Position numbers and translations under genes: made by a program. Below, piece after piece: positions 48,798-63,816 of a stretch of 64,000 bases of DNA. The notes beneath the pieces are model-generated. The model searched no databases and was not told where the DNA came from. It was given only the letters and a program-made list of their open reading frames with translations. The number at the start of each line of letters is the position of its first letter. The first letter of the stretch is position 1. This DNA is from Talaromyces rugulosus (taxonomy: Eukaryota > Ascomycota > Eurotiomycetes > Eurotiales > Trichocomaceae), in assembly GCF_013368755.1 (NCBI RefSeq), contig NC_049564.1, positions 3,914,001 through 3,978,000 of the forward strand. Reading direction: 5' to 3'.

Positions 48798-49532
48798 TTA
48801 TAATACATTACTCAAAGACATATCTATACAAGTCTCATTCTCCCTCATTATCCGGTCAAACTCATCCCAGTCGATCAAATCATCCAACGTCAACGCAGGA
48901 TCAGAAACTTCGAACTGAGCTGTCAACCCTGCAAAATCACAACCCATCTCAACCACTTCTTCTTCTCCCTCCATCCCTATCGTCTTCCCAGCAGCTGTAA
49001 CAGTAGTAGCTTGCCCTGTTGCAGCATCCCTAATATTACTAGCATACTGCCCCGGTGTCACACCGGCCACTTTCTTAAACACACGATGAAAATGACTCGC
49101 CGTCAACCCAGCCTCCCGCGCCAACTCGCGCAGCACCGGGGGATTCCGACCCGCTGTAATCGCCGACGAAATAGTCTCGCACGTTTTAGCAATCGTCGCG
49201 CTATGCGGGCCTTTTATTATCATTGACTCCGGCTCTTGTCCTCCTTCTTTGGTTGCGGCCGCACGGTAATGTTCATCAGGTTTACACCGTTTGCACGCGC
49301 GATACCCCGCCGTTGATGCTGTGGCGGGGGAGTCGTAGAATTCGATGTTTGCTCGGCGCGCCAGACGTGCTGGACATCCAGGGCGGCAGTAGATGCGTGT
49401 TGAGCGAACGGCGTAGATGAAGCTGTTTTCGGTGGCGTCGCGATATACGAGAGCTTTCCAGCGGGCGGCTGCAGTGGTGGCGGCGGCGTGTGTATTTTTT
49501 GGTGTTGGAGGGAGGGGGAGGGCGGAAATCAT
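48798..49532 (-). CDS. Ada-type methylphosphotriester sensor with AraC HTH
   Basis: One exon of 244 residues. The N-terminal Ada zinc domain is complete: FIYAVRSTRIYCRPGCPAR and YRACKRCKPDEHY supply the four cysteines, the first being the methyl acceptor of E. coli Ada. An AraC-type helix-turn-helix follows (LRELAREAGLTASHFHRVFKKVAGVTPGQYASNIR). The O6-methylguanine transferase domain of bacterial Ada is absent; in its place is an acidic tail containing PALTLDDLIDWDEFDRIM, which looks like a eukaryotic activation domain. The expected role is to sense methylated DNA phosphates and induce repair genes. The stop codon is 67 bases from the convergent regulator gene. Confidence 0.9.
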   Translation of the reverse strand: MISALPLPPTPKNTHAAATTAAARWKALVYRDATENSFIYAVRSTRIYCRPGCPARLARRANIEFYDSPATASTAGYRACKRCKPDEHYRAAATKEGGQEPESMIIKGPHSATIAKTCETISSAITAGRNPPVLRELAREAGLTASHFHRVFKKVAGVTPGQYASNIRDAATGQATTVTAAGKTIGMEGEEEVVEMGCDFAGLTAQFEVSDPALTLDDLIDWDEFDRIMRENETCIDMSLSNVL

Positions 49533-49994: not shown

Positions 49995-51667
49995 TTATAG
50001 CATGTACCGGAATCCCCTATGCAACTGACGAGCCGCAGCAATATCAACGCCCTCTGCATCAGCAGTCTTCTGCAACCTGCGCAGCTCCTTTTCGGTCAAC
50101 TGCACATCCTCATTCTCCAATCGCTCCTGGCGTTTGTTGAGCTTGTTTAATGTGAAATACATAAAAACAGCCGAGAGACCCCCCAGCGCTTGGACAGCAA
50201 TACAGATCCCAAGCGCAACACGGTAATAAGGTTTCTCAGAGTCGTAGTAAGTATAAGGAGTCCAAATGCTGGCCGAATTACCAAGAGAGTTAATAAAGGC
50301 GTAGGCGGCAGCACGCTTGGCTGGAGGTCGTGGCAAAGAGCTGGCGATCCAGGAATACAGCGTGCCGTTTTGAGCAAATGTAAAATTCATCAGAAACAAG
50401 GAAAGATACCGTGGCCCAAACGAGTCGGTCGTCATGAAAATGATAAATCCGATAATGGTGATCGGAATCGGGTAGAAAAAGAACCAGAACCGCATACCGA
50501 GTCTATCTGAAATCCAGCTGTGTGCAAGACTGTAAAAGACCATAAAGACATATGGTGGTGCTACCAACAACAGCGAGATTGTGTTACTGTAACCTAAGGT
50601 GCTGGTCAGAGTAGGGAAGAAATACTGAAAGCTTCCGCCAGCAGCGATGCAAAAGTATGCGAGAGCCAGGGCGTATGTCTTGACATCGGTCACGGCCATC
50701 TTGAGACCCTTGAGTTGGCTTGCACCTAGTATCAAAAAGTTAGTTATAGCCATATTAAACTTTGTTTTTTTTTAAAAAAAAAATTGGTACATACTGCCCT
50801 CTTCATCGACATCGGTCTCGGCCGCATCGATTGCAAGTCGTCGTATTGCGACCTCCTTCATCTCTAGCGAAAGAACTCGCCATGTTTCAGGAAAATCGGG
50901 CAGAAGAATGGCAATAGCAATGCCGATCACACAGGTGATAGACCCCTCGATAACATAGAGCCATCGCCATGCAGACATTCCACGTTTGCCATCGAGTCCG
51001 CTCAGAATTCCGGCAGCAATCAAGTTTCCAAAGGCACCACTGAGCAGCGAACCTGAGTAGAAAACACTCATACGAAAAGCTAGTTCTTTTTTGGTGTACC
51101 ACTTGGATAGATAGAACAAGACGCCGGCGAAGAATGGAGCCTCTATATTTGAACCAAATTATTATCAGTGGTAATAAACGGATATAACTAACGTACCGAC
51201 GAGCCCCAACAGGAATCGACACGCAACCATGCCTCCATAGCTTTGGACCTGGCTGGTGCATGCAGACACAAGTCCCCACGCACAGACAAAAAAGCTTATA
51301 TAGAGCGATGGCCGACCCATATAATTGAGCAGGAGATTGGACGGGACTTGCATAAGAATGTAGGCGATGAATAGAATAGAAAGCCCAGTCTGATATTGCT
51401 GATTAGTGAGGGAAAGCTCCTGAATAAGGCCCTGGAGTTTTGCAGCGGCATAGTTGTTTCTAGGAAAAGACAACATGAGTGATAGGCTTATAATCACGGA
51501 ACAAGTTGAAATTACCGATCAATATAGTTCATTAGGTAGACCAGAATGATCAATGGCATGATGAGAGCATCGATGCGCCGCGTCAGTTTTTTCTCGAGCA
51601 CCTTTTCCCCGGCAGTCAACTGACCCAGATGCACGAACTCTTCGTGTTTTGCTGCAGTTTTCTCCAT
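49995..51667 (-). CDS. MFS permease, anion:cation symporter (Dal5-like) family
   Basis: Four exons (51667-51516, 51459-51197, 51142-50795, 50725-49995) give 497 residues. The profile is a 12-helix permease with DALIMPLIILVYLMNYIDRNNYAAAK at helix 1, QTGLSILFIAYILMQVPSNLLLNYMG at helix 2-3 and the central loop after AIAILLPDFPETWR. The ACS/Dal5 family carries organic anions such as allantoate, nicotinate and tartrate; bacterial glucarate/galactarate permeases GudP and GarP belong to the same broad family. With the aldarate-type enzymes nearby it is a candidate aldarate importer, which is inference. Its promoter has the densest set of TCCGTG/CACGGA words in the cluster. Confidence 0.9.
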
Positions 51668-51927
51668 AATAGTGTTTGTATTTGCAAGAGAATTGCCTTC
51701 TATGGTGATAAAATATTAAAACGAAATAGTAGTTGTGAAGACAAAGTTATAATACCGGTATCATTGCTACCTGTCCTCGACTTGCTTTTTATCTCAGGAA
51801 TAGAACCTGGTCATTCCCTAACCCCATAGTCCATTGTCATAGCTCATTGTTTCCCCGCATTTTCACTAGAATTCGTAGCGGAGAAAAATGGCAGGGACCA
51901 GGATCAGGAGCATTTCCGACTGACATC

Positions 51928-51944
51928 TCCGTGTCTCCCACGGA
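51928..51944. promoter_or_regulatory. Inverted repeat TCCGTG-N5-CACGGA
   Basis: Perfect 6-base arms with a 5-base spacer, about 260 bases upstream of the permease start. Contains CCG and CGG triplets, as in Zn2Cys6 dimer sites. Confidence 0.5.
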
Positions 51945-52094
51945 ACCACCCCTATATTTGATTTAATGGCGGACAACCGCATCTATCGATACTCCGACTG
52001 GTCAACTACTGGGCCCGAACCCCGCTCACGCTGTATTGTTGACATGAAAAGCCTTTCTGTCTATTCATGTGGTGCTTTTCCGTGTGTAGACCTT

Positions 52095-52110
52095 TTCCGT
52101 ATACACGGAA
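52095..52110. promoter_or_regulatory. Inverted repeat TTCCGT-ATAC-ACGGAA
   Basis: Perfect 6-base arms with a 4-base, largely self-complementary spacer, 10 bases from an exact TTTCCGTGT word. Confidence 0.5.
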
Positions 52111-52393
52111 CTACGAAGACGCTACGCGTATAGTCTCATATAATACCCACGGGTCGATCCCTTCCTTTTCATGATTACAGATCCTGCTGGGGCTTGTGGT
52201 AACGATCAGCACCCCAAGCTGAAATGACTTGCTCCTTCTGACCTCTATGTCACGCGAGATCTAGTCAGTGCAGAAATACTAAGGAAAGGGCAACATTATT
52301 TTAACCACCCCCTTTAAAATAAGAGTTGAAAGGTTTTGGAGAGAGGAATATAGATTTTATACTATCTTGGTCCTGCATTCTGCCTCTCACTCA

Positions 52394-54529
52394 CTATTCC
52401 AAATGTTGAGAACCAACATTTTTCCCTTTCTCTAGGACATGGTTCAATGTCACATCTCGACCTTCTTTGATTCCACGTCGCATCTCGTTAGCTTTCTTCA
52501 CGGGGTTTTGCGCTTGGTCCATGAAACAAAGATCAATTGACTCGAGGCTGAGCCCAGCAGTCTGATCGAAGGATGTCAGTCTTTAAACTTCAATGCTCTC
52601 TATACTTTAAAACTTGGCTTACCTCTGGGACAAAAAAGTATATAAACGGAATGAAAGCGAGATTAAAACAAGCGAATATAAGATACACTCGCCATCCAAT
52701 GTTATCAATTGCGACGGGGACAATCTCCACAACAACGAAAGTAGAAAGCCATAAACAGGCCGTCGCAAGACCTTCACCTTTGGCTCTATGGGCGAGAGGT
52801 AAGATCTCCGGAGCATAGACCTTGAATAGGGATTCAACGTTAGTTGGGGGGATCAATTGGATAAGATTGAATAATGCGAACTGACCCATATTGGACCCAT
52901 AAATCCCCAGGCATAGAATGCTTCGTAAAGAAAAAGCATAATGGCTGCAACTATTCCAGCAGTCTGGGTGTTGACTGCAATCATTGCTGCCATTACAGCC
53001 ATCACAATCGTCATGCCGAGCGCTGTGACCATAAATGACAACCGGCGGCCCTGGGATGAGACTTAGTAACGTACCAGCTGAAGGGGGGGAAAGACTTACC
53101 CATTTCTCGATCGAATACCAGGTCCCTACACTAGCACACATGCGAAAGACTTGTAAGACACCCGCAAGTAGAAGAGCCTTTTTGTATGAAAGCCCGATTG
53201 AGTTTTTAAAACTGGTAAAGTACCACGATAGTTAGTGTACGTCTTTTGGTAAACGACGGCATACTCACATGAATGTCGTATAGTAGCTGACTGGCGTACT
53301 GCCACTCCATGCTTGACAAGCATTTAGAATGCAAGAAACTACCACTCTTCGTCGTGATCCTACGTTGTCGCCCTTGAAAAGATCTGTCCAGCCCGCTTGA
53401 TTGTGTTCGATGGCTATTGCGTCCGTAATATCAGTGACGGTCTTGTTCATGGCATCTTCATCAAGCTGGCCGTGGTGAGTATGCAAGCGAGTTAGGACAT
53501 CGATCGCTTCCTCTCTATATTCGTTTTGAAGCAGCCATCGTGGAGCTGGACAGACATTAGTTATTTGTATCTGGCTAGTCGCCGGAGAAACTTACATTCA
53601 GGCATCACGAACAGAAGCGCGCTCAGTAAGAGGGCCAATGCAGCTTGCAATGCCTGTTTAGACATGATTGTTAATTTGTGTGGAAAAAAACATCTGCAAA
53701 GAGGTCATACCAGCGGAAGACGCCAGGCATAGCTGCTCGCGCGATCAGCAATTCCGTACTCCAACCATAATGCTATCAACTGTAAGACACCAATGAATCA
53801 GCAACAGTTCGAAGTATTTCGAGTATTTTCTTTTAGATACGCACATCTCCAAGAATAAGAAACGTCAGGGCAGAAGCCACCAAGCGACCTCTCATATGAC
53901 TTGGGCTTATCTCTGTTTGCCACATGATGATATTGGACACTACGAGCTGATATTCAGTTAGTCTCCTGTTCAGACGGATTGGGGAGTTTGACAAAACATA
54001 CCCCCAAGCCAATGCCTGCGACTATGCGTCCAACAAGCAGCTGAGGAATCCCATAGCTTGCAGCCTGTAAGACAGCGCCGATAGTCACACCGAATGAGCC
54101 AAAATGCGCAATAGTTTTTCGACCGAGTCTCCCATTAATTAATGCTGAGATGAGACATCCTAAAAACTACACGTACGATTAATTAAGCGCATCTCTCTGG
54201 ACAATAACACTTACAGCCCCAACCACGAATAGTGATGTAACAGTTCCTTCCATTGCAGAGTTCAGATGAAACTGAGACTCAAAAGTTGGCGCCGTCCTAA
54301 GAAGAAAGTTTTTTAGTCAAAAGGCAGTTTCAATTTAAATGGATATTGATATCTCCATACAAAAGCCCTCCAATTACACCATCATCGTAGCCTATGTTCA
54401 AATTTCTAGTTAGAAAAGGCAGCCGTAGGGTTTCGCAACGTGAATAATACCAAATACGATAAATCCCATCCCGGCAGTGATGGTTACACCAGTTAAAAGG
54501 CCATTGCCTTTCAAATTGAGGTATGCCAT
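52394..54529 (-). CDS. MFS sugar-porter family transporter
   Basis: Twelve short exons join in frame to 501 residues: 54529-54451, 54391-54361, 54296-54215, 54166-54002, 53946-53845, 53779-53711, 53653-53596, 53545-53269, 53211-53100, 53050-52886, 52820-52623, 52561-52394. Sugar-porter signatures are present: GYDDGVIGGLL at helix 1, NGRLGRKTIAHFG after helix 2, VGRIVAGIGLG, SHMRGRLVA, the PESPRWLL motif after helix 6, and FVPETAGLSLESID at the C-terminus. It most likely moves a hexose, uronic or aldonic acid by proton symport at the plasma membrane. Exact substrate cannot be read. One TTTCCGTGT word lies 180 bases upstream of the start, linking it to the neighbouring catabolic genes. Confidence 0.9.
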
Positions 54530-55507
54530 GATTACATACGTATAGCACTATGTAGTGAAAATATCCCAAATAGAATGGAAAAGGCAATTGCAGTCGAAAT
54601 ATGGAGCTATCACTTGATAGCTGGGGTCTTGGGGTTTGCCATTATATGCCAAGACGTGAGAAAACCAGTAACTTACGTAGCACTAGGCTACTCAACTAAT
54701 CTTGAAGTTTCCGTGTGAGAGGCGGATATGTTTCCATTAGTGAGTGAATGGGCGATGCAAGAGCTCTCCACATTTCCCCCACAATTCCCCGGAAAAGAAG
54801 ATTATTAGGACATCAACTAGTCTTGAGAGCTCCCGGAGAACACTCCGATTATTTAACTTTCTATATAGCCAATTTCTCTACGTTTATTTAAGCGCCTATT
54901 TTCTACGACTTTCTACGCATGAGCGCTCACCGAAGTTTTATACTCGACGCTTTCATTATTGCCGTGGTTCTCAAACTTAGGATGTAGCCGCCATAGATTC
55001 TCAATAGCGAGGTATCCCATGACGAAAATCGAGATTCAAATCATTTCTTGTGAGACATTACCAACGAAAAGAAGAGCCTTGGCGGTTGCTAACGCATGAC
55101 CGGCGGATATAAATGTTATTGATCTGATACAATAGATAAGTCGAATAGGGTCGGCCTATCGAGATTCCCGGATCAATCAGCCAACATGGCCACGGTGAAA
55201 ATTCTGATCAGGAAGTAATAAGCGAAATTAGAAAATTGTGTGGGAACTGCATATAAATAGAAAATTAGGGGGGAATAGCAGAAGAGACCTTTTGACACCT
55301 CTACGGAATTGGCACCCTTAAGAAGGCTCCATATAATTTCAAAGCTTGGTCCGCAAAGTGGGACACGGCACTAGTACTTTGCCCCACCAAAGTCTTAGTT
55401 AACTTTTGCCATTTTATATCAATGATTCTGACAGTTGCACTTGTTTCTTTTTTCTAAATTTCACACTTTTTCACTTTTTTCATACCACTTGACATAGGTC
55501 CTTCGGT
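54530..55507. promoter_or_regulatory. Sugar-porter promoter and gene-free stretch
   Basis: Includes TTTCCGTGT at 54708-54716. The rest is AT-rich without recognisable genes. Confidence 0.45.
54708..54716 (+). promoter_or_regulatory. TTTCCGTGT promoter word
   Basis: Exact copy of the 9-mer found at 52077-52085 and 59522-59530. Confidence 0.5.
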
Positions 55508-56107
55508 ATGGCCACAAGTGAGAACCATCTGGTAATAAAAGATTCTCTTGAACGGCGCCGTCACCATGAGCCAACATGTTATCTCGCCAAGCATCGGGAT
55601 ACCATCTACAAGGATATTCCTATCAATCACTTGATTCCTCTAGCGTTTCATGTAAAGGTGACTCACCTGAAGACAGCCGATCTTCAACTGCTGATCACAC
55701 TTGTCTGCAAAAAATACGACAACTCTAACCTGCTTTCTGATTGGCACAAATATTGCAAGGCTTTAGACCCCGAAAAACGAATAATAGCTACACTTGGTAT
55801 GTTAGCCTTTTTTTTGTTATTAATACTATGCTCATTTTATGAAGAAGGGGCACTATTTTTTGCAGCAGTATCTTTACCCCCATCGGAAGACCGAGAATCA
55901 TGGAAGTCGACATGTCTCAGTGGTTTCTATTTATTGAAGCATGGCAATGATGCGAGATCCAAATCCCCAGACGACCAGTCGGCCCATGGTCCTGTATCGC
56001 AAACGCAAATTAAGCCTACACCCGCTCAACAAGAAGCGAACGGAATTTTTCCCCATGGTTATCCTGTACCACCTCCCTCAAAGCATGCTTCTACAGAGAG
56101 CCCATGA
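55508..56107 (+). CDS. Hypothetical protein, doubtful
   Basis: A 199-codon open frame with no recognised domain. The first hundred residues have a protein-like composition (HLIPLAFHVKVTHLKTADLQ, DWHKYCKALDPEKR). A hydrophobic stretch after that may be an in-frame intron: GTATGT at 55797 and TTTTTTGCAG ending at 55865 bound 69 bases with a poly-pyrimidine tail, and removing them leaves the frame intact (176 residues). It lies between the sugar porter and the cluster regulator. It could be a relic or a small lineage-specific gene. Confidence 0.3.
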   Translation: MATSENHLVIKDSLERRRHHEPTCYLAKHRDTIYKDIPINHLIPLAFHVKVTHLKTADLQLLITLVCKKYDNSNLLSDWHKYCKALDPEKRIIATLGMLAFFLLLILCSFYEEGALFFAAVSLPPSEDRESWKSTCLSGFYLLKHGNDARSKSPDDQSAHGPVSQTQIKPTPAQQEANGIFPHGYPVPPPSKHASTESP

Positions 56108-56930
56108 GCAGACCAGTAACATGTTGATTTTTTTTCAACATCCAAAATCTTGCCGTCTAATCCAGTGGCAACTGTGGGACCTAATGCGATGAAAATAGTT
56201 TTCACGGACTCGATTCATACCAAACGAGCTTAGGCCATTTTATCTCGTTGCAGAGTACCATTAGGTTAGGAATTGACTCATCGTCACAATGATTCTATTC
56301 TATTACTAGATTTACAAATTGGGAGAAGTTATTAACTTAAAATTATTCACAATAAACATAAGACTTTAAGGAAGCATGAAAACCGACTTTTATAAGATAA
56401 TAAAGCGCACTGATTCGATTGACTTTTACCAGAATGGGATTAGCTTATGAAGTGGATCCGACAATATAGATCACCATATTTCACAAACACATTCAGCCAA
56501 TATTCTCCAAGGATTCTGAAGAATTTGGTGACGTTATGCCGTTTTATTGGGACAGGCAGGTGGAGAATTTCGCTGCCGGCAAACTATCAGACAAGAAAAA
56601 TTACGGCATTCAGCCTCAACAAGCTTTTTGAGGACAGCTCTCTCGTATAATGTGAGTTTCCGTCTTGTCATTTTTGGCTAACTTTAGCACCGTTTGAAGT
56701 GTCATTTTATGAGCCATCTTATTAGCATCCCTGCTGCTAACTCTCATGATCAATATCATTTCTATCTCAGTCTATATTACCAGGGATGGTCGGTCTATAG
56801 TCATAAAACAACAACTCACCGGCCCAAAGCCGCGGTTTTTAACCCAGTTTCACTCCATACTTTGTGTGCATCGTGTGGACCTCATACCGTAAAAAATTAT
56901 GTAGTATTTACAGTCTTGTATTACTCAAAG
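56108..56930. other. AT-rich gene-free stretch
   Basis: No gene recognised; a single CACGGA word is at 56203-56208. Confidence 0.35.
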
Positions 56931-59378
56931 CTAAATCGCAAGCGGATCATAATTCGTAAACACGCCCATAGTATTACCCAGCCCCGAAGATACCATAGAT
57001 GTGAACTGATCCCAGTCCGAATAATCAGAAAACGAAAAGCCCGGAATAGTATTATTGCCATTGAAGTCAACAATATCCGGTTCTCCTCTTAGGTCAGTAG
57101 TATAATCAGTAGGGTTTTCTCGGGGTTCGCCCATTGGAATTCCACTACTACTAGCCGTGGGGTGGAGCCAGTTACCATTAGTCGTACTAGTATCTTGTGA
57201 CTGAGTATTCACCATTTCTCCCAGGTTCGTTGGTTTTGTTTGGCGAAGAGCTTCGACTCGTAGCTCCTCCAGGACGAGGCAATACCGTTCCGAGAGCGAC
57301 CCCTTTTCAGCAATTGCAGAGATATGGGACTGGCATCGAGTGGCGGCAGAGAGATAACTACTATAAACTTCTGATGGAGAAGCACACTCCTGTATTACGT
57401 AGATGTACAGCATGATGGTAGCGTTGAAACCAAAGTACGTGGTGATCTGCAGCAGATCAGTCAGTAAAAAGACCAAGAAAAAATCACACAAGATCTAATT
57501 GAAACAAACCCAGAACGCGCGGAAAAATTGACGGCTTTCAGTGATTTCGTTGATTGTATTCACCGTATTCATCGCGGCATCTAGACACTCTTTCAGCGTG
57601 TCCTCGGTCCGGGCGTCGTCTTCATACCGGACGTCCCCCTTATTCCGTTGTGAAAGGCGTGCGAGACTGCCCAATACAAAGGGCCGATGGGAGAGAATAA
57701 CGGCATGCCAGTAGGTCAGATTGAGCACATTTCGTTGTCGCTGAAAGAGTGGAATCAGAAAGGATGTGCTGAATTTGTCGACATCCAAGAACCGAGTCAA
57801 CTCTGCGCGCCAGTTTCTCAGGTCTTGTAAGATCTCCTCCACAGCAGCTTTCCGACGGGTGGCAGATATTGGCTTGATGGAGTAGAGATTGGTTAGAATT
57901 TTACCAATCACTTGTGCGAGTCTGTTCTGTCAGTTAGAGGAACTAGTAAGGAGAAACTGGGCTATCTCACTTCATATGTGAAAGTGCAGCAAGCATGGTT
58001 GACGGGCCCCTGCTTGAAACCACTGGCAGGTTCATATCATTGGTCATTAAATCCTCATCCTCGATACAAGCCGGAAGCTCCGTGTCAATATCGTCGTCAT
58101 GAAAAGTCCGCGGCCTACCCAAAGCAGCGCTGAGGTATGCGTCGAGCGTGTAGGCGCACCAAAAGGTTCGACGGCGGCACTCGGCCTCAACAACATTTAA
58201 CTTGTTCGTTAAATTAGGGGATATGTTTCTATTAAGGCCGATAGCGAGTGCCAGATGTGAGACTGTTCCAAACAGGCTCCAGCAATGGTTGATCCGGGAT
58301 TGGGTGAGCAGGTAATAGCACTGCGTCAATCGTGCTTGAACACTGGTTAAGCGTATTGAGCCCTTTTCCTTTGTGAGCTGATGGTCTGCTGCCAGGAAGT
58401 ATCGTGTGCTGTATAGTTACTTTATATTAGCATGCCTTTATTCGTTTCCGAGGTTTATGGCTGACCTTAAGTCCGGTGGCCCCGGCCTGTCATCCTCCGG
58501 CATATAAACCCTCGCGTGGGCAAAGACCATGAAGAGCAAAGCAACCTTGGCTGGAGCCTTTTGCACGTCACGCATTGTGCCAAGAGTGTCATAAAACTCA
58601 TTGAACCATTCCTGTATAGTAGGACGGTGCAGGAAGCGGTATGTAGGCATCGCAAAATCAAAGTACCGATCTATCAGACGCTGGGCATCCGGCCTGGGAA
58701 GCATCATACAGAACGACGGGTCAAATTCGGCAAGCTGTAGAGGCGCGTCACCAAATGTAAAGATGCTGCTAGCTGGGGAGAATGATATGGCTTGGTGCAG
58801 GCGTTTTTGGATGCGGTGAAGAAAGGACACTCCGGATGCAGGTCCAATATAGTGTCCCTGCAAGTCAGTCTGAGAAGGTTCTGGTGAGTTGTGCGACGAT
58901 GCCTCTGCATATATGGCGGCAGAAGGCGCCACCACGTCAGGCAATGAATCATGTTGGTTTTGCAAATCGGTGGTATTATTTCGTTCGGTCCTGGAGAGCA
59001 GCTGCTGTTCTGATACCAAGCTATTTCTAGTTGCATCCTCAACTAGTGCTAGATTGCTTCCATTATCATCACCAGGAACTGAAACTGAAAGAACAGAAGG
59101 AACCCTTCCTCTTGAATAGGCCGAAGTAAATGTGCAATTCGCCTTGGCCCTGAGGCAAAAATCGCACGGCTGTGCGCTATTACATCTTATCTTTCTCCTA
59201 GAAATTGTTACTCTCAGAGGATAAACCTATGAATCAAAAAAAGCCCTCACCTTTTGCACCTATCGCATGCCCTTGTGACCTTGACCCTCTCCTTGTTTCG
59301 ACTCCGCTTTCTTCGTATCTGTGACCGATTACTATTCTCCACAGATGACGGAAGTGATATTGATTGACCGGAAGCCAT
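56931..59378 (-). CDS. Zn2Cys6 transcription factor of the aldarate-type cluster
   Basis: Five exons (59378-59251, 59197-58466, 58408-57971, 57921-57510, 57446-56931) give 741 residues. A basic N-terminus precedes the zinc cluster, split by the first intron: TRACDRCKRRKIRCNSAQPC then DFCLRAKANCTF, spacing C-x2-C-x6-C-x5-C-x2-C-x6-C. The fungal_trans domain is recognisable from RLIDRYFDFAMPTYRFLHRPTIQEWF to HLALAIGLNRN, ECRRRTFWCAYTLDAYLSAALGRP and DDDIDTELP, as in XlnR/GaaR-class sugar regulators. It is divergent from the SDR gene across a 357-base promoter that has a TTTCCGTGT word, suggesting autoregulation together with the enzymes. Confidence 0.9.
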
Positions 59379-59735
59379 ATTATTGACGCGTTATAGAACA
59401 ATATTAGAACGGAAATGCAAGGATGGGGAACGGAAGCTCTAGACTGTCTGACAAGCGCGGTCTTCTTTCCGGTTTTCTTCCCGGGGTCTATGGTCTAGAC
59501 ATGTTAGGGCCAACGGATTATTTTCCGTGTCCACAGAGAGTATTCTTAGACATAGGCCAGTAATATACCTTTGTAAAAAAGAGCTCTATCCTTGGTGTAT
59601 GAGGAGCTCCATAGCATAGTGGGGTGTTCATTTAGTATATCAATCTTGACTTTTTTTTTTTTTTCACCACCCTCATAACTGGTGCTTCAATTGAGACATC
59701 CAACCTGAATAACTAAAACCACCAAATCCAATACC
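59379..59735. promoter_or_regulatory. Divergent promoter of regulator and SDR
   Basis: Contains CGG-N8-CCG at 59514-59527 overlapping TTTCCGTGT at 59522-59530. Confidence 0.55.
59522..59530 (+). promoter_or_regulatory. TTTCCGTGT promoter word
   Basis: Exact third copy of the cluster 9-mer, forming with the upstream CGG an inverted CGG/CCG pair. Confidence 0.5.
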
Positions 59736-60675
59736 ATGGCAGCAGCAGTGTCCCAACGCCTCGCCGGCAAAACAGTCCTCATCACCGGTGCCTCATCCGG
59801 CATCGGACGGTCTTCAGCCTTTGAATTCGCACGCACATCTCCACAGAATCTCAAACTGATTCTGACCGCGCGCCGCATTGACAGCCTCAACCAGATCGCC
59901 GCCGACATTGTCAAGGAAGTTGGTTCTGGGGTCAAAGTGTTGCCCGTTCAGCTCGATGTTAGCAATGCCGACGAGGTGCGGGCGTTTGTGGGTAAATTGC
60001 CTGCAGAATTCAAAGAGGTTGATGTGCTAGTGAATAATGCGTACGTATTTTCCCCCCCCTTTTTATACACACTGGCGCAATTGCTAAGTAACTTACCTGT
60101 GTAGTGGCCTAGTCCGAGGCGTCGCCAAAGCCCCCGAAATCCTCGAAGAAGACATGGACATCATGTTCAAAACCAACGTAACAGGGCTAATCAACATGAC
60201 CCAAGCAATTTTACCCATCATGCTAAAACGCAACAACGGCGCTGGAGCCGGCGACATCATCAACATCGGATCCATCGCAGGCCGCGAGCCATATATTGGC
60301 GGCGGAATTTACTGTGCGACCAAGGCTGCCGTCCGATCTTTTACGGAAAGTCTGCGCAAAGAGCTGATTTCGAAGCGTGTCCGTGTTATTAGCATTGATC
60401 CGGGTCAGGTTGAGACGGAGTTTTCGGTTGTGCGGTTCTATGGGGATAAAAGCAAAGCCGATGCTGTTTACGCGTGAGTTAAAATAATATACTATGCTCT
60501 TCTTTTTTTTTTTGGAGGCTTATGATTCTGTCTTAGGGGCTGTGAGCCATTGACACCAGAAGATATTGCCGAGACGATTGTGTTTGTTGCTGGACGAAGG
60601 GAGAATGTAGTCATCGCCGACACGCTGCTCTTCCCAAATCACCAGGCTAGTGCTACTATCATGCATCGGAAATAG
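59736..60675 (+). CDS. Short-chain dehydrogenase, YdfG/YMR226C-like
   Basis: Three exons (59736-60040, 60105-60473, 60537-60675) give 270 residues. Classical SDR features: TGASSGIG nucleotide-binding motif near residue 17, NNAG (completed by the first splice), INIGSIAG with the catalytic serine, and YCATK with the Tyr-x-x-x-Lys pair. The C-terminal half (DPGQVETEFSVVRFYGDKSKAD, LTPEDIAETI) closely follows the 3-hydroxy-acid dehydrogenases E. coli YdfG and yeast YMR226C, which act on serine, allo-threonine and related 3-hydroxy acids with NADP. In this cluster, reduction of tartronate semialdehyde to glycerate would suit it, which is a hypothesis. Confidence 0.92.
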
Positions 60676-61179
60676 ATGAAAGTACTTTTGATCAAGCAGA
60701 CTTGATTATGTATACATTTAGGGTTTCAACGAGAATGGGTAGGTAGTACATATAGATGTGCTGGAATGCAAATGGAATTATCCGAGACAAATTTAATACT
60801 TTTATTAAAATTCACTACAGGCAGCTGCATCATTCTCACATGTTAAATTCAGAGGGAGATCTAATTGACGGCATTGAACGTAGACAACTGCTTATCCGTC
60901 GGAAATGCCTTGTATAGTATCCGTCTAGGCCGTCACGGAAACATCGAATCCGTGAACTGAGTATGGAGATACCCCGTGCTTATTCGTCATCGTAATAGCC
61001 TTTTCCTCAAATGATGTGTATTCCCCTCATCAAATTGATATAGCAACTCCGATGCCGGATAAAGTTGCAAGATAACAAGTTAGTAAGGCCTATTGAACCA
61101 AGAATTTCCAGAGCCTGCAGATACAGAGCTTGACTATTACAATTCAGACAAAACTTCCTCGCAAAGAAAAAGAAACAAA
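60676..61179. promoter_or_regulatory. Promoter of the aldolase gene
   Basis: Gap of about 500 bases with the TCACGGA-N9-TCCGTGA inverted repeat at 60933-60955. No gene seen. Confidence 0.45.
60933..60955. promoter_or_regulatory. Inverted repeat TCACGGA-N9-TCCGTGA
   Basis: Perfect 7-base arms, equivalent to CGG-N11-CCG, about 225 bases upstream of the aldolase ATG. Confidence 0.55.
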
Positions 61180-62130
61180 ATGGCATCCTCCAACGTCCCA
61201 CCCAGCGGCGTATGGGCCCCAACAATCACCTTCTTCAACCACAGCACCGACACCCTCGACACCGACTCCCAAGCCAAATACTACACTTATCTCTCCTCCC
61301 AAACCGGCCTTTCCGGGCTCGTCGTGCTAGGCACAAACTCTGAAACATTTCTTCTAACCCGCGAAGAACGCAAAACCTTGCTAAAAGTCGCGCGCAAAGC
61401 ATGCGGTCCCTTTTATCCGATCATGGCCGGCGTAAGCGGACATTCAACAAAACAAGTCCTCGAGTTTATCGCAGATGCAAAGGAAGCAGGGAGCAACTAT
61501 GCGCTTTTGCTCCCACCAGCGTATTTTGGAAAACAGACGACGGCGGCTGTGATTAACAACTTTTTTGATGATGTAGCCGCGGCGAGTCCGTTGCCCATTG
61601 TGATATACAATTTCCCGGCGGTGTGCAACGGTATAGACCTCGATTCAGCAACCATTGCACACCTCGCCAAAAGGCATAGTAATGTGATTGTCGGCGTAAA
61701 GCTGACTTGCGGTGCCGTGGCCAAAATCACACGTCTCGCCGCCGAGCTTCCAGCCGAGAAATTCGCTACGTTTGGCGGACAGTCTGATTTTCTGATCGGT
61801 GGGCTTGCTGCGGGGTCCATGGGCACTATTGCGGGTTTTGCGAATGTGTTTCCAAAAACTATTGTGCGGATCTATAACTTGTATCAAGAAGGAAATATTC
61901 AGCAGGCGATGGAGTTGCATAAGCAAGCGGCGCTGGCTGAGCAGCCGTGTAAAGCTGGCATTGCCTCTGTCAAGTATGCTGCTGCGTTGAATACGGCCAA
62001 GGCGGCGGGCATTGAGGACGCGATAGAAAAGTTGAAGCCGCGAAGGCCGTATACGGAGCCATCTGAGGCGGAGAAGAAGAGTATTGAGATGCAGATAGCG
62101 AGTTTAGTGAGTGTCGAAGCAGGCTTGTAG
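61180..62130 (+). CDS. DHDPS-family aldolase/dehydratase, HOGA-like
   Basis: An intronless 316-residue protein of the dihydrodipicolinate synthase/N-acetylneuraminate lyase family. The start at the AAACAAAATGG context is preferred, though the frame is open further upstream. The class I Schiff-base lysine is Lys174 in VGVKLTCG, the proton-relay tyrosine is Tyr143 in IVIYNFP, and the carboxylate-binding loop is GTNSETFLLTREE. The style resembles 4-hydroxy-2-oxoglutarate aldolase and fungal 2-keto-3-deoxy-L-galactonate aldolase. Beside a glucarate-dehydratase-type gene it may cleave 5-keto-4-deoxyglucarate to pyruvate and tartronate semialdehyde. A decarboxylating dehydratase role (2,5-dioxopentanoate product) is the alternative. 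Confidence 0.92.
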   Translation: MASSNVPPSGVWAPTITFFNHSTDTLDTDSQAKYYTYLSSQTGLSGLVVLGTNSETFLLTREERKTLLKVARKACGPFYPIMAGVSGHSTKQVLEFIADAKEAGSNYALLLPPAYFGKQTTAAVINNFFDDVAAASPLPIVIYNFPAVCNGIDLDSATIAHLAKRHSNVIVGVKLTCGAVAKITRLAAELPAEKFATFGGQSDFLIGGLAAGSMGTIAGFANVFPKTIVRIYNLYQEGNIQQAMELHKQAALAEQPCKAGIASVKYAAALNTAKAAGIEDAIEKLKPRRPYTEPSEAEKKSIEMQIASLVSVEAGL

Positions 62131-62538
62131 TTAATTGGGCTAGTACACTAGAACTGAATCTATTAAGTCATGGTTTTTGTTATGTTGACCCTATACTCAC
62201 ATTCCATTAGGCCTATAGAAGCAGCTACTATAGCGTGAAAGACACCTGTGTATGCTGTCACAAGTCCAAGCATGATCCAAGACTTTTTTCCGGACAGCTG
62301 CTGAGTACGGAAATGTACATATACAGTCTCCGTGCGGATAACCCTAACCCGCAGCTACCCCCGATGTGGGGCTCCTGACTATACAGAGATTGCGGAGTAG
62401 GGCCGAGTCAGTGTATTTGCTCTGGGATATTAAGTTATATTCCACGAGTCCAGAAATAATAATATGCGAAAACTGTCATCTCAAGTATATACCACCGCAT
62501 GTGACAACTCTCAGTCCGCAGGCCAACAAGTCGGAATC
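62131..62538. promoter_or_regulatory. Promoter of the dehydratase gene
   Basis: Contains TCTCCGTGCGG near 62327-62337 and the telomere-like TAACCCTAACCC at 62339-62350. Confidence 0.45.
62339..62350 (-). repeat. Short telomere-like repeat
   Basis: Two CCCTAA-type units adjacent to a TCCGTG word, about 190 bases upstream of the dehydratase ATG. Confidence 0.55.
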
Positions 62539-63816
62539 ATGTCCATCATAAAAGACATCGTCATCACGCCCGTGGCATTCCACGACATGCCCTTACTCAA
62601 CAGCGTCGGCGTGCATGAACCCTTTGCGCTACGCAGTATCATCGAGGTCATCACCACTTCTACTCAATACGGCCTGGGCGAGTCCTACGGTGACTCGGCT
62701 CACCTATTGCGACTGCAAAAAGCAGCAGACAAACTCACGGGTCTGTCCGTGTACGACACAAACGCTATTTACAGAATCTGCGTCGAGAGTTTGGCGGGCG
62801 ATGATGCTAGTACATCTGGCGGTGATGGGATGGCAGGTATGGTTACTACTGCCTCTGTGGCAGATAAAGTGTTCTCACCGTTTGAGGTTGCATGTCTCGA
62901 TATCCAGGGAAAACTTGCTGGTGTGCCTGTAAGTGAGTTGCTGGGTGGACGTGTCAGAGACTCGGTGCAATACTCTGCATATCTCTTCTACAAATGGGCG
63001 AAACACCCGGACCAGCCAGAAGACGATGAGTATGGCGAGGCACTCGATCCAGCAGGTATTGTCAAGCAAGCCCGCAAGATAATCGACGAGTATGGCTTCA
63101 AAGCCATCAAACTCAAAGGCGGTGTTTTCCCGCCTGCGCAGGAAGTTGAGGCTGTCAAGGCGCTACATGCTACGTTTCCGGGAGTGCCGCTGCGACTCGA
63201 TCCGAATGCTACATGGACAGTTGAGACGTCGAAATGGGTCGCCAATGAGTTGCAAGGTATTGTCGAGTACTTGGAAGACCCAGCGCCTGAAATTGAAGGG
63301 ATGGCTGCTGTTGCCAAGGAAGCCTCACAAATGCCTCTGGCCACAAACATGGCTGTTGTGGCCTTTTCACATCTTCCTCCCTCAATAGCCCAAAACGCAG
63401 TACAGGTAATCCTGTCAGATCATCATTTCTGGGGGGGTCTGCGCAAATCGCAAACGCTGGCTGCTATCTGCGCGATTTGGGGTATACGGTTGTCAATGCA
63501 CTCCAACAGTCATCTGGGCATCTCGCTCGCGGCCATGACGCATCTGGCCTCTGCGACGCCCAATTTGGATTATGCGTGTGACACGCATTGGCCGTGGAAG
63601 AGGAGCGATGAAGATGTTGTTGTTGATGGCGCGCTCAAGTGGGTTGATGGGGGTGTGGTTGTGCCTACTGCACCGGGTTTGGGTGTTGAGCTCGACCGAA
63701 AGAAGTTGGAGAGACTGCATAGGCAGTATTTGGACTGTGGGATTACGAAGAGGGATGATACGACGTATATGAGAAAGTTTCGGCCAGAGTTTTCGCCGCA
63801 TATTCCGAGGTGGTGA
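62539..63816 (+). CDS. Glucarate-dehydratase-type enolase-superfamily enzyme
   Basis: An intronless protein of 425 residues from the preferred ATG, where bacterial glucarate dehydratases also begin (IKDIVITPVAFHDMPLLNSVGVH). The frame is open 25 codons further upstream. The active site is intact: Lys191-x-Lys193 in FKAIKLKGGV, metal ligands from Asp221 in LRLDPNATW and the acidic EDPAPE, ATNMAV, Asp294 in LSDHHFWGG, and the His321 base in MHSNSHLGIS. The C-terminal DTHWPW and PGLGVELD are also glucarate-dehydratase-like. The expected reaction is dehydration of D-glucarate (or an epimer such as galactarate) to 5-keto-4-deoxyglucarate with Mg2+. The L-galactonate and L-rhamnonate dehydratases of fungi are more distant members. 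Confidence 0.9.
   Translation: MSIIKDIVITPVAFHDMPLLNSVGVHEPFALRSIIEVITTSTQYGLGESYGDSAHLLRLQKAADKLTGLSVYDTNAIYRICVESLAGDDASTSGGDGMAGMVTTASVADKVFSPFEVACLDIQGKLAGVPVSELLGGRVRDSVQYSAYLFYKWAKHPDQPEDDEYGEALDPAGIVKQARKIIDEYGFKAIKLKGGVFPPAQEVEAVKALHATFPGVPLRLDPNATWTVETSKWVANELQGIVEYLEDPAPEIEGMAAVAKEASQMPLATNMAVVAFSHLPPSIAQNAVQVILSDHHFWGGLRKSQTLAAICAIWGIRLSMHSNSHLGISLAAMTHLASATPNLDYACDTHWPWKRSDEDVVVDGALKWVDGGVVVPTAPGLGVELDRKKLERLHRQYLDCGITKRDDTTYMRKFRPEFSPHIPRW

What the first reader, a model, noticed from the sequence alone, without database searches (positions are those of the whole stretch)
49995..63816. Candidate fungal aldarate (glucarate/galactarate) catabolic cluster
Six neighbouring genes make a coherent route: an ACS-family permease (the broad family of bacterial GudP/GarP), a sugar porter, a Zn2Cys6 regulator, a glucarate-dehydratase-type enzyme with an intact active site, a HOGA-like DHDPS-family aldolase, and a YdfG-like 3-hydroxy-acid dehydrogenase. 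Dehydration of glucarate, cleavage to pyruvate plus tartronate semialdehyde, and reduction to glycerate would reproduce the bacterial gud/gar logic. The aldolase would come from a different family than GarL, and the reductase from a different one than GarR. The families are established knowledge; the joint pathway is inference.
Basis: partly seen in the sequence, partly recalled or inferred. Interest (0 to 1): 0.82.

Follow-up and report, generated by a model that had tools for sequence, protein, structure and literature searches.

The report
Fungal glucarate-type sugar-acid catabolic cluster
A mould carries a compact gene cluster that probably imports and breaks down glucarate-type sugar diacids by joining a dehydratase of bacterial origin to a fungal aldolase and a fungal reductase, giving a testable candidate for a fungal pathway that is still poorly known.

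Summary
The six genes are real and open. The genome is Talaromyces rugulosus. The dehydratase is a glucarate-dehydratase-type enolase-superfamily enzyme of a separate subgroup (33% identical to E. coli GudD, far below the GudD cut-off); it keeps 16 of 18 recalled GudD active-site positions and nests among actinobacterial sequences. Near 51 of 80 such bacterial genes lies a DHDPS-superfamily ORF; all six scanned are of KdgD (5-dehydro-4-deoxyglucarate dehydratase) type. The fungal neighbour is not KdgD but a fungal DHDPS-family enzyme, sister to two paralogues, one beside proline-catabolism genes. A DapA-like 5-keto-4-deoxyglucarate aldolase (GudL) is known from bacteria. The five promoters share ACGGAA (11 sites, 0.74 expected). 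Best reading: hexarate, 5-keto-4-deoxyglucarate, pyruvate plus tartronate semialdehyde, glycerate. Every reaction is inference; no expression, growth or enzyme data exist here. In A. niger, an MR/MLE gene and an SDR gene induced by galactarate were dispensable for its use, so galactarate is less secure than glucarate. A new variant of the known gud/gar logic.

The parts
49995..51667 (-). ACS-type (anion:cation symporter) MFS permease, 497 aa, exons 51667-51516, 51459-51197, 51142-50795, 50725-49995
   Evidence: model; MFS_1 128 bits; best NCBIfam TIGR00893 D-galactonate transporter 194 bits (cut-off 395, not reached)
52394..54529 (-). sugar porter (Sugar_tr), many short introns, 3' half of the model uncertain
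   Evidence: models; Sugar_tr 194 bits on the first 325 residues; a porter is fused to the dehydratase in two Colletotrichum gene models
56931..59378 (-). Zn2Cys6 regulator, 741 aa, 5 exons
   Evidence: model; Zn_clus and Fungal_trans
59736..60675 (+). SDR, YdfG/YMR226C-like, 270 aa, exons 59736-60040, 60105-60473, 60537-60675; putative tartronate semialdehyde reductase
   Evidence: model; 100% to TRUGW13939_08085; YMR226C 265 bits; YdfG model 205 of 411 bits
61180..62130 (+). DHDPS-family class I enzyme, 316 aa; putative 5-keto-4-deoxyglucarate aldolase
62539..63816 (+). glucarate-dehydratase-type enolase-superfamily enzyme, 425 aa
51668..52393 (.). region upstream of the permease; ACGGAA/TTCCGT at 51940, 52078, 52095, 52105
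54530..55507 (.). region upstream of the porter; motif at 54709, 55303
59379..59735 (.). divergent promoter of regulator and SDR; motif at 59409, 59430, 59523
60676..61179 (.). region upstream of the aldolase gene; motif at 60935
62131..62538 (.). region upstream of the dehydratase gene; motif at 62307

Best explanation
An inducible cluster for catabolism of a six-carbon aldaric acid, most likely D-glucarate and/or a stereoisomer. One or both permeases import the acid. The Zn2Cys6 protein probably controls the five promoters through CGG-type sites. The enolase-superfamily dehydratase makes 5-keto-4-deoxyglucarate, the DHDPS-family class I aldolase splits it to pyruvate and tartronate semialdehyde, and the NADPH-type SDR reduces the semialdehyde to glycerate, which is phosphorylated by a kinase outside the cluster. 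Shown here: gene content, linkage of the trio in other fungi, active-site conservation, nesting of the dehydratase among actinobacterial sequences, a shared promoter motif. Inferred: every substrate and reaction, cofactor use, transport and the link between regulator and motif.
For: Dehydratase keeps 16 of 18 recalled GudD positions, those recalled for the distal carboxylate (H32, R422) included. In 51 of 80 actinobacterial loci a DHDPS-superfamily ORF lies near; 6 of 6 scanned pass the PRK03620 KdgD-type cut-off; an aldehyde-dehydrogenase-like family recurs in 34 of 80 loci, the example scoring 107 bits on 2,5-dioxovalerate dehydrogenase, below its cut-off of 750. This points to 5-keto-4-deoxyglucarate as product of the subgroup. 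The fungal DHDPS protein is far from KdgD (57 of 374 bits) and groups with paralogues, one beside Pro_dh and P5CR genes, which would suit a 4-hydroxy-2-oxoglutarate aldolase and so a diacid-handling ancestor. A DapA-like 5-KDG aldolase, GudL, complements E. coli garL (PMC11775122, passages). Reductase of 3-hydroxy-acid type fits an acid semialdehyde. Linkage: 21 sets of near-serial tags, 27/22/20 shared contig lengths for the three pairs. Shared promoter motif, 1 of 1000 random sets as extreme.
Against: No curated equivalog cut-off is reached by any of the four proteins scanned (dehydratase 248 of 829). GudX, the GudD-related protein, keeps all 18 positions, so conservation does not prove the activity. 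Of the 8 bacterial rows nearest the fungi in the tree only 2 carry a DHDPS-superfamily ORF. In A. niger an MR/MLE and an SDR gene rose on galactarate but were dispensable (PMC5153877); orthology not tested. No class I or II glycerate kinase detected. Eight further ACGGAA sites lie in the rest of the cluster region, so the motif is not confined to promoters. Permease and regulator not tested for linkage elsewhere.
Confidence: 0.66

Rival explanations
1. The cluster degrades a five-carbon aldarate (xylarate or arabinarate): dehydration gives 4-hydroxy-2-oxoglutarate, the HOGA-like aldolase splits it to pyruvate and glyoxylate, and the SDR reduces the aldehyde product.
For: The aldolase's sister paralogue lies beside proline-catabolism genes, where a 4-hydroxy-2-oxoglutarate aldolase would fit; UniRef names of relatives read 4-hydroxy-2-oxoglutarate aldolase.
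Against: Bacterial kin of the dehydratase lie beside KdgD, whose substrate is the six-carbon product. YdfG/YMR226C-type SDRs are 3-hydroxy-acid enzymes, not glyoxylate reductases (recalled).
Confidence: 0.12
2. The DHDPS-family protein acts as a KdgD, dehydrating and decarboxylating 5-keto-4-deoxyglucarate to 2-ketoglutarate semialdehyde, as in the bacterial operons, and the SDR acts on that semialdehyde or is unrelated.
For: KdgD is the usual neighbour of the bacterial dehydratase and belongs to the same superfamily.
Against: 57 bits against a KdgD cut-off of 374; separate branch in the tree; YNFP motif and no LPT-type segment seen in the two KdgD rows; no aldehyde dehydrogenase gene was recognised in the cluster.
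Confidence: 0.07
3. The substrate is an uncommon aldonate or a plant- or lichen-derived hydroxy acid, not an aldarate; the glucarate name is an annotation carried over.
For: The subgroup fails the GudD equivalog and the solved members carry no assigned activity in their titles; TIGR00893 fit of the permease points to aldonates (below cut-off).
Against: Residues recalled for the distal carboxylate are kept; KdgD neighbours in bacteria; 3-hydroxy-acid-type reductase.
Confidence: 0.13
4. The genes are neighbours by chance and serve separate routes.
For: Permease and regulator were not shown to be neighbours elsewhere.
Against: Trio linkage in many species and shared promoter motif.
Confidence: 0.02

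Closest known systems
E. coli gud/gar pathway (GudP, GudD, GarL, GarR, GarK)
   Same: Proposed order of steps: import, enolase-superfamily dehydratase, aldol cleavage to pyruvate and tartronate semialdehyde, reduction to glycerate.
   Different: Dehydratase from another subgroup (33% to GudD); aldolase DHDPS family instead of GarL (HpcH/HpaI, recalled); reductase SDR instead of GarR; no class I glycerate kinase detected.
Divergent gud/gar pathway with GudL of Enterocloster clostridioformis (PMC11775122, abstract and passages)
   Same: DapA-like (DHDPS-family) protein takes the place of GarL; it complements E. coli garL.
   Different: Bacterial, with ordinary GudD, GarD and GarR homologues; the residue K194 reported as universal in the GudL clade seems absent here (no GudL sequence in the alignment).
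Alternative bacterial glucarate route (glucarate dehydratase, KdgD, 2-ketoglutarate semialdehyde dehydrogenase)
   Same: The nearest bacterial kin of the dehydratase often lie beside a KdgD-type gene.
   Different: The fungal neighbour is not KdgD and an SDR stands where an aldehyde dehydrogenase would.
Fungal D-galacturonate pathway GaaA-GaaB-GaaC-GaaD (PMC5488244, start of abstract in a listing)
   Same: MR/MLE-type dehydratase (recalled for GaaB), DHDPS-type aldolase (recalled for GaaC), then aldehyde reduction.
   Different: Acts on an aldonate after reduction; GaaB and GaaC could not be named in this genome, so the relation was not tested.
A. niger galactarate catabolism (PMC5153877, parts 1-3 of 4 read)
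   Same: An MR/MLE gene (1146483) and an SDR gene (1141260) are induced by galactarate.
   Different: Both are dispensable there; the genes whose loss blocks or reduces use are an aminoadipate-reductase-like gene, an aldo/keto reductase and an FAD oxidoreductase.
Colletotrichum HGT5 glucarate dehydratase (PMC4320630, passages)
   Same: Bacterial glucarate dehydratase gene in Pezizomycotina; Colletotrichum relatives of the window protein are 82-86% identical.
   Different: The passages seen treat single genes, not a cluster; whether HGT5 is the orthologue was not tested.

Membership tests
glucarate dehydratase GudD (NCBIfam TIGR03247) | curated equivalog cut-off of 828.7 bits | tested here: not met
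   247.9 bits
glucarate dehydratase subgroup of the enolase superfamily | KxK, D/E/N metal ligands, D-H dyad and recalled ligand residues of GudD | tested here: met
   16 of 18 recalled positions identical; T103 and E266 differ; over all 30 printed positions 23 are identical
glucarate dehydratase subgroup of the enolase superfamily | activity on D-glucarate or a stereoisomer | not testable with these tools
   needs an assay
L-rhamnonate / D-galactonate dehydratase | match to PRK15440 or PRK14017 | tested here: not met
   PRK15440 not among 14 families listed at E 1e-5; PRK14017 65 of 311 bits; other genes of the genome fit them: L038 357 of 393, L036 316 of 311
KdgD (TIGR03249, PRK03620) | curated cut-offs 373.95 and 278 bits | tested here: not met
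   56.6 and 64.1 bits
DHDPS/NAL class I aldolase superfamily (PF00701) | family match, Schiff-base lysine and YN motif tyrosine | tested here: met
   126 bits; GVKLTC lysine at DapA K161 and YNFP tyrosine at DapA Y133
GudL clade (PMC11775122) | M110 and K194 conserved in the clade | tested here: inconclusive
   At DapA D187/D188 the window protein has Q/S, not K, and at DapA Y107 it has Y; no GudL sequence was at hand for a direct alignment
YdfG / YMR226C 3-hydroxy-acid dehydrogenase | equivalog PRK10538 cut-off of 411 bits | tested here: not met
   204.6 bits, but the best of 219 families listed; YMR226C is the best solved chain, 265 bits
YdfG / YMR226C 3-hydroxy-acid dehydrogenase | NADP(H)-dependent activity on 3-hydroxy acids | not testable with these tools
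   needs an assay
gud/gar catabolic unit | dehydratase, aldolase and semialdehyde reductase genes linked | tested here: met
   in the window and by tags and contigs in other fungi
gud/gar catabolic unit | GarL and GarR families | tested here: not met
   different families stand in their place
gud/gar catabolic unit | glycerate kinase in the genome | tested here: inconclusive
   PF02595 and PF13660 give no match; PF00485, which holds the class III kinases reported in fungi (PMC2063504, passages), gives several weak matches over its cut-off, not assigned
gud/gar catabolic unit | induction by aldarates | not testable with these tools
   no expression data for this fungus

The most novel reading that the evidence does not exclude
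Filamentous ascomycetes took a glucarate-type dehydratase from Actinomycetota, did not keep the bacterial KdgD partner, and built a pathway of their own by recruiting a fungal HOGA-like aldolase and a second YMR226C-like reductase: a further, independently assembled form of the 5-keto-4-deoxyglucarate aldolase route, kept as a cluster across Eurotiomycetes and Sordariomycetes under its own Zn2Cys6 regulator.
Probability: 0.52. Interest if true: 0.68.

Novelty: new variant of a known kind. Interest (0 to 1): 0.57.

Why it matters
How fungi break down aldaric acids is open: the A. niger study calls the galactarate pathway unknown and could not assign reactions to the three genes it found necessary (PMC5153877, parts 1-3 of 4; PMC6353982, passages). 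This cluster offers three enzymes, a regulator with a candidate motif, and transporters, so the question becomes directly testable. It bears on glucarate and galactarate production in moulds, where such genes would drain the product, and on how a pathway is rebuilt around one horizontally acquired enzyme.

Tried and rejected
L-rhamnonate and D-galactonate dehydratase were rejected for the window protein because other genes of the same genome fit those models. L-galactonate dehydratase GaaB had no reference sequence at hand; two further MR/MLE loci (L037, L039) stay unassigned. KdgD was rejected for the fungal protein. E. coli-type galactarate dehydratase (PF04295) gives no match in this genome. 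GaaC could not be named among the ten other DHDPS loci of the genome. Structure prediction and fold searches were not used: a solved chain with an 808-bit match exists (3va8; its source, Fusarium, is recalled) and a fold would not settle the substrate. PF00485 as a glycerate kinase test was too unspecific. Literature searches listed, in the rows shown, no fungal dehydratase-aldolase-SDR aldarate cluster; tartronate semialdehyde + fungus + glucarate gave 0 papers. This covers only the held open-licence library.
Full report
What is there. The window lies in a six-contig fungal genome of 35.8 Mb. The cluster SDR is 100% identical to Talaromyces rugulosus TRUGW13939_08085, on a contig of the same length as the window's, so I take the species to be T. 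rugulosus (Eurotiales). I rebuilt the six gene models and confirmed their families. The dehydratase is the last recognised gene on the right: the next ORF over 186 aa starts 4.7 kb further and looks like a protein kinase by eye; spliced genes in between are not excluded.

Dehydratase. Among solved chains the best is 3va8 (808 bits), then 3vdg, 3vc5 and 4it1 (574, 541, 464 bits; two of these three are titled probable or putative glucarate dehydratase), then chains titled glucarate dehydratase at about 190-221 bits. It fails the GudD equivalog (248 of 829 bits). Against E. coli GudD it is 33% identical. Of 18 positions recalled as GudD active-site residues, 16 are identical (N27, H32, Y150, F152, K205, K207, D235, N237, E260, N289, D313, H339, S340, N341, H368, R422); T103 and E266 differ; GudX keeps all 18. 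This supports the chemistry and a diacid substrate but does not fix the stereoisomer. In a quick tree of 53 rows (window and 18 of 120 listed fungal proteins, 32 of the 80 bacterial loci, GudD and GudX as outgroup) the 19 fungi form one clade (SH-aLRT 100), sister to a Nocardioides sequence (97) and inside Actinomycetota. The bacterial rows were chosen by likeness to the fungal protein and the outgroup is very distant, so the exact donor is unsure. Bacterial origin of a glucarate dehydratase gene was already reported for Colletotrichum (PMC4320630, passages).

Bacterial context. The scan confirmed 399 relatives and kept the best 80, which I examined. Of these, 51 hold a DHDPS-superfamily ORF in the held flank: 31 just upstream on the same strand, 14 downstream on the same strand, 6 otherwise placed, two of the last only because the locus is cut short. 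I scanned 6 of the 51: 6 pass PRK03620 (405-423 bits, cut-off 278) and 3 of 6 pass TIGR03249. An aldehyde-dehydrogenase-like family recurs in 34 of 80 loci; its example scores 115 bits on aminobutyraldehyde and 107 on 2,5-dioxovalerate dehydrogenase, both below cut-off. Searched with the fungal aldolase itself only 9 of 80 loci answer, with 33-55 bits; the fungal SDR answers weakly in 7, E. coli GudP in 4, GarR in 1, and GarL, GarK and GarD in none. So the bacterial subgroup most likely makes 5-keto-4-deoxyglucarate for the KdgD route. Against this, of the 8 bacterial rows nearest the fungi in the tree only L054 and L056 carry such an ORF.

Aldolase. The fungal protein scores 57 bits on KdgD against a cut-off of 374; its best curated model is DapA, 120 of 206 bits. 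It has the Schiff-base lysine, YNFP and GTNSE, and lacks the LPT-type segment of the two KdgD rows aligned. Its best solved chain is 3qfe, a putative DHDPS family protein of no stated activity (442 bits). In a tree of 24 DHDPS rows its orthologue group (95/94) is sister to two paralogues of the same genome (100/99 for the ten rows); KdgD lies far off, but the E. coli rows are long branches and the deep part is unsafe. One paralogue, L040 (55% identical), lies beside Pro_dh and P5CR-dimer genes, which suggests a hydroxyproline locus and a 4-hydroxy-2-oxoglutarate aldolase; that is inference. A DapA-like 5-keto-4-deoxyglucarate aldolase, GudL, restores glucarate and galactarate fermentation in E. 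coli garL mutants (PMC11775122, abstract and passages). The step is therefore precedented; the GudL clade marker K194 seems absent here, which would mean separate recruitment, but I had no GudL sequence to align.

Reductase. The SDR is nearest to YMR226C among solved chains (265 bits) and to YdfG among NCBIfam models (205 of 411 bits). A second copy elsewhere in the genome is 67-73% identical over three exon stretches, which fits a housekeeping gene plus a cluster copy. Action on tartronate semialdehyde, and NADPH use, are inference.

Linkage elsewhere. Three homology searches list the best 120 rows each. Reading the names by hand I find 21 sets of tags that lie within 5 numbers. All three genes: Rhinocladiella mackenziei, Thermomyces stellatus, Aspergillus nanangensis, Thyridium curvatum, Verticillium albo-atrum. 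Dehydratase and aldolase: T. islandicus, Exophiala bonariae, Monosporascus ibericus, Monosporascus sp. GIB2. Aldolase and SDR: A. terreus, Penicillium citrinum, Scytalidium lignicola, Neonectria magnoliae, Monosporascus sp. CRB-9-2, P. macrosclerotiorum, P. manginii, Fusarium zealandicum. Dehydratase and SDR: F. decemcellulare, Trichothecium roseum, Cladophialophora chaetospira, P. citrinum (other record). Their placing in Eurotiomycetes, Sordariomycetes and, for Scytalidium, Leotiomycetes is recalled. Results that do not fit: in V. longisporum (BN1708_015231 and BN1708_003626) and A. oleicola dehydratase and SDR are shown with different contig lengths, which could reflect an SDR paralogue. 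Most rows carry no serial tag and say nothing. Equal longest-contig lengths: 27 dehydratase-aldolase (12 of them 60 kb or less), 22 dehydratase-SDR, 20 aldolase-SDR, 8 all three; shifting the lengths by seven values from 1 to 13 gave 0 or 1. Equal length stands for the same contig, and on Mb-size contigs it does not show closeness. Two Colletotrichum models fuse the dehydratase to a sugar porter, so a porter lies beside it there. Permease and regulator were not tested in other species.

Regulation. In the five promoters (3011 bases) ACGGAA/TTCCGT occurs 11 times, at least once in each, against 0.86 expected from 210 kb of this genome or 0.74 from its non-coding pieces; the best 6-mer statistic was reached by 1 of 1000 random sets of segments. 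The window holds 28 sites in all: 9 in the first 49.9 kb and 8 more in the cluster region outside the promoters, so the motif is dense there but not confined to promoters. A CGG-type site fits a Zn2Cys6 regulator; binding is not shown.

Against and open. In A. niger galactarate consumption was blocked or reduced by deleting an aminoadipate-reductase-like gene, an aldo/keto reductase and an FAD oxidoreductase. An MR/MLE gene (2 to 641 FPKM in 5 h) and an SDR gene (132 to 805) rose on galactarate, yet their deletion did not stop consumption, which even began earlier (PMC5153877, parts 1-3 of 4). If these are orthologues, the cluster is not the main galactarate route there; orthology was not tested. 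Class I and II glycerate kinases and E. coli-type galactarate dehydratase give no match in this genome. PF00485, which holds the class III glycerate kinases reported in fungi (PMC2063504, passages), gives weak matches that I cannot assign.

Verdict. A conserved fungal cluster that probably catabolises an aldaric acid by gud/gar logic, with three enzymes none of which is the standard E. coli one. The chemistry is a strong inference, not a demonstration.

Noticed in passing
L035:5230-9080 and L036:204-2578 (own genome, C1 near 6.49 Mb): A second MR/MLE-DHDPS neighbourhood: a galactonate-dehydratase-type gene over its cut-off (316 of 311 bits), a DHDPS-family gene 43% identical to the window aldolase, and by eye an SDR and a GMC-type oxidoreductase. 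Possibly a non-phosphorylative galactonate route.
   Followed up: partly
L040:265-5811 (own genome, C1 near 4.087 Mb): DHDPS-family gene beside proline dehydrogenase and pyrroline-5-carboxylate-reductase-type genes: a possible fungal hydroxyproline locus with a 4-hydroxy-2-oxoglutarate aldolase.
   Followed up: partly
window 48798-49514 (-): Ada-type gene (Ada_Zn_binding 93 bits, weak AraC helix-turn-helix) just left of the permease: a bacterial-style DNA methyl-damage sensor in a fungus.
   Followed up: no
window 55508-56107 (+): Uninterrupted ORF of 199 aa without Pfam match between porter and regulator; gene status unknown.
   Followed up: no
L115:10948-12612, L063:8321-9259, L110:9787-10686: Families that recur near the bacterial dehydratase: one like ABC solute-binding proteins (44 of 80 loci), one LysR-regulator-like (27 of 80) and one without a strong NCBIfam match (27 of 80); unexplored.
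   Followed up: no
L049:4164-5554 (own genome, C3 near 2.086 Mb): Second YMR226C-like SDR gene, 67-73% identical to the cluster copy by exon; probable housekeeping paralogue.
   Followed up: partly
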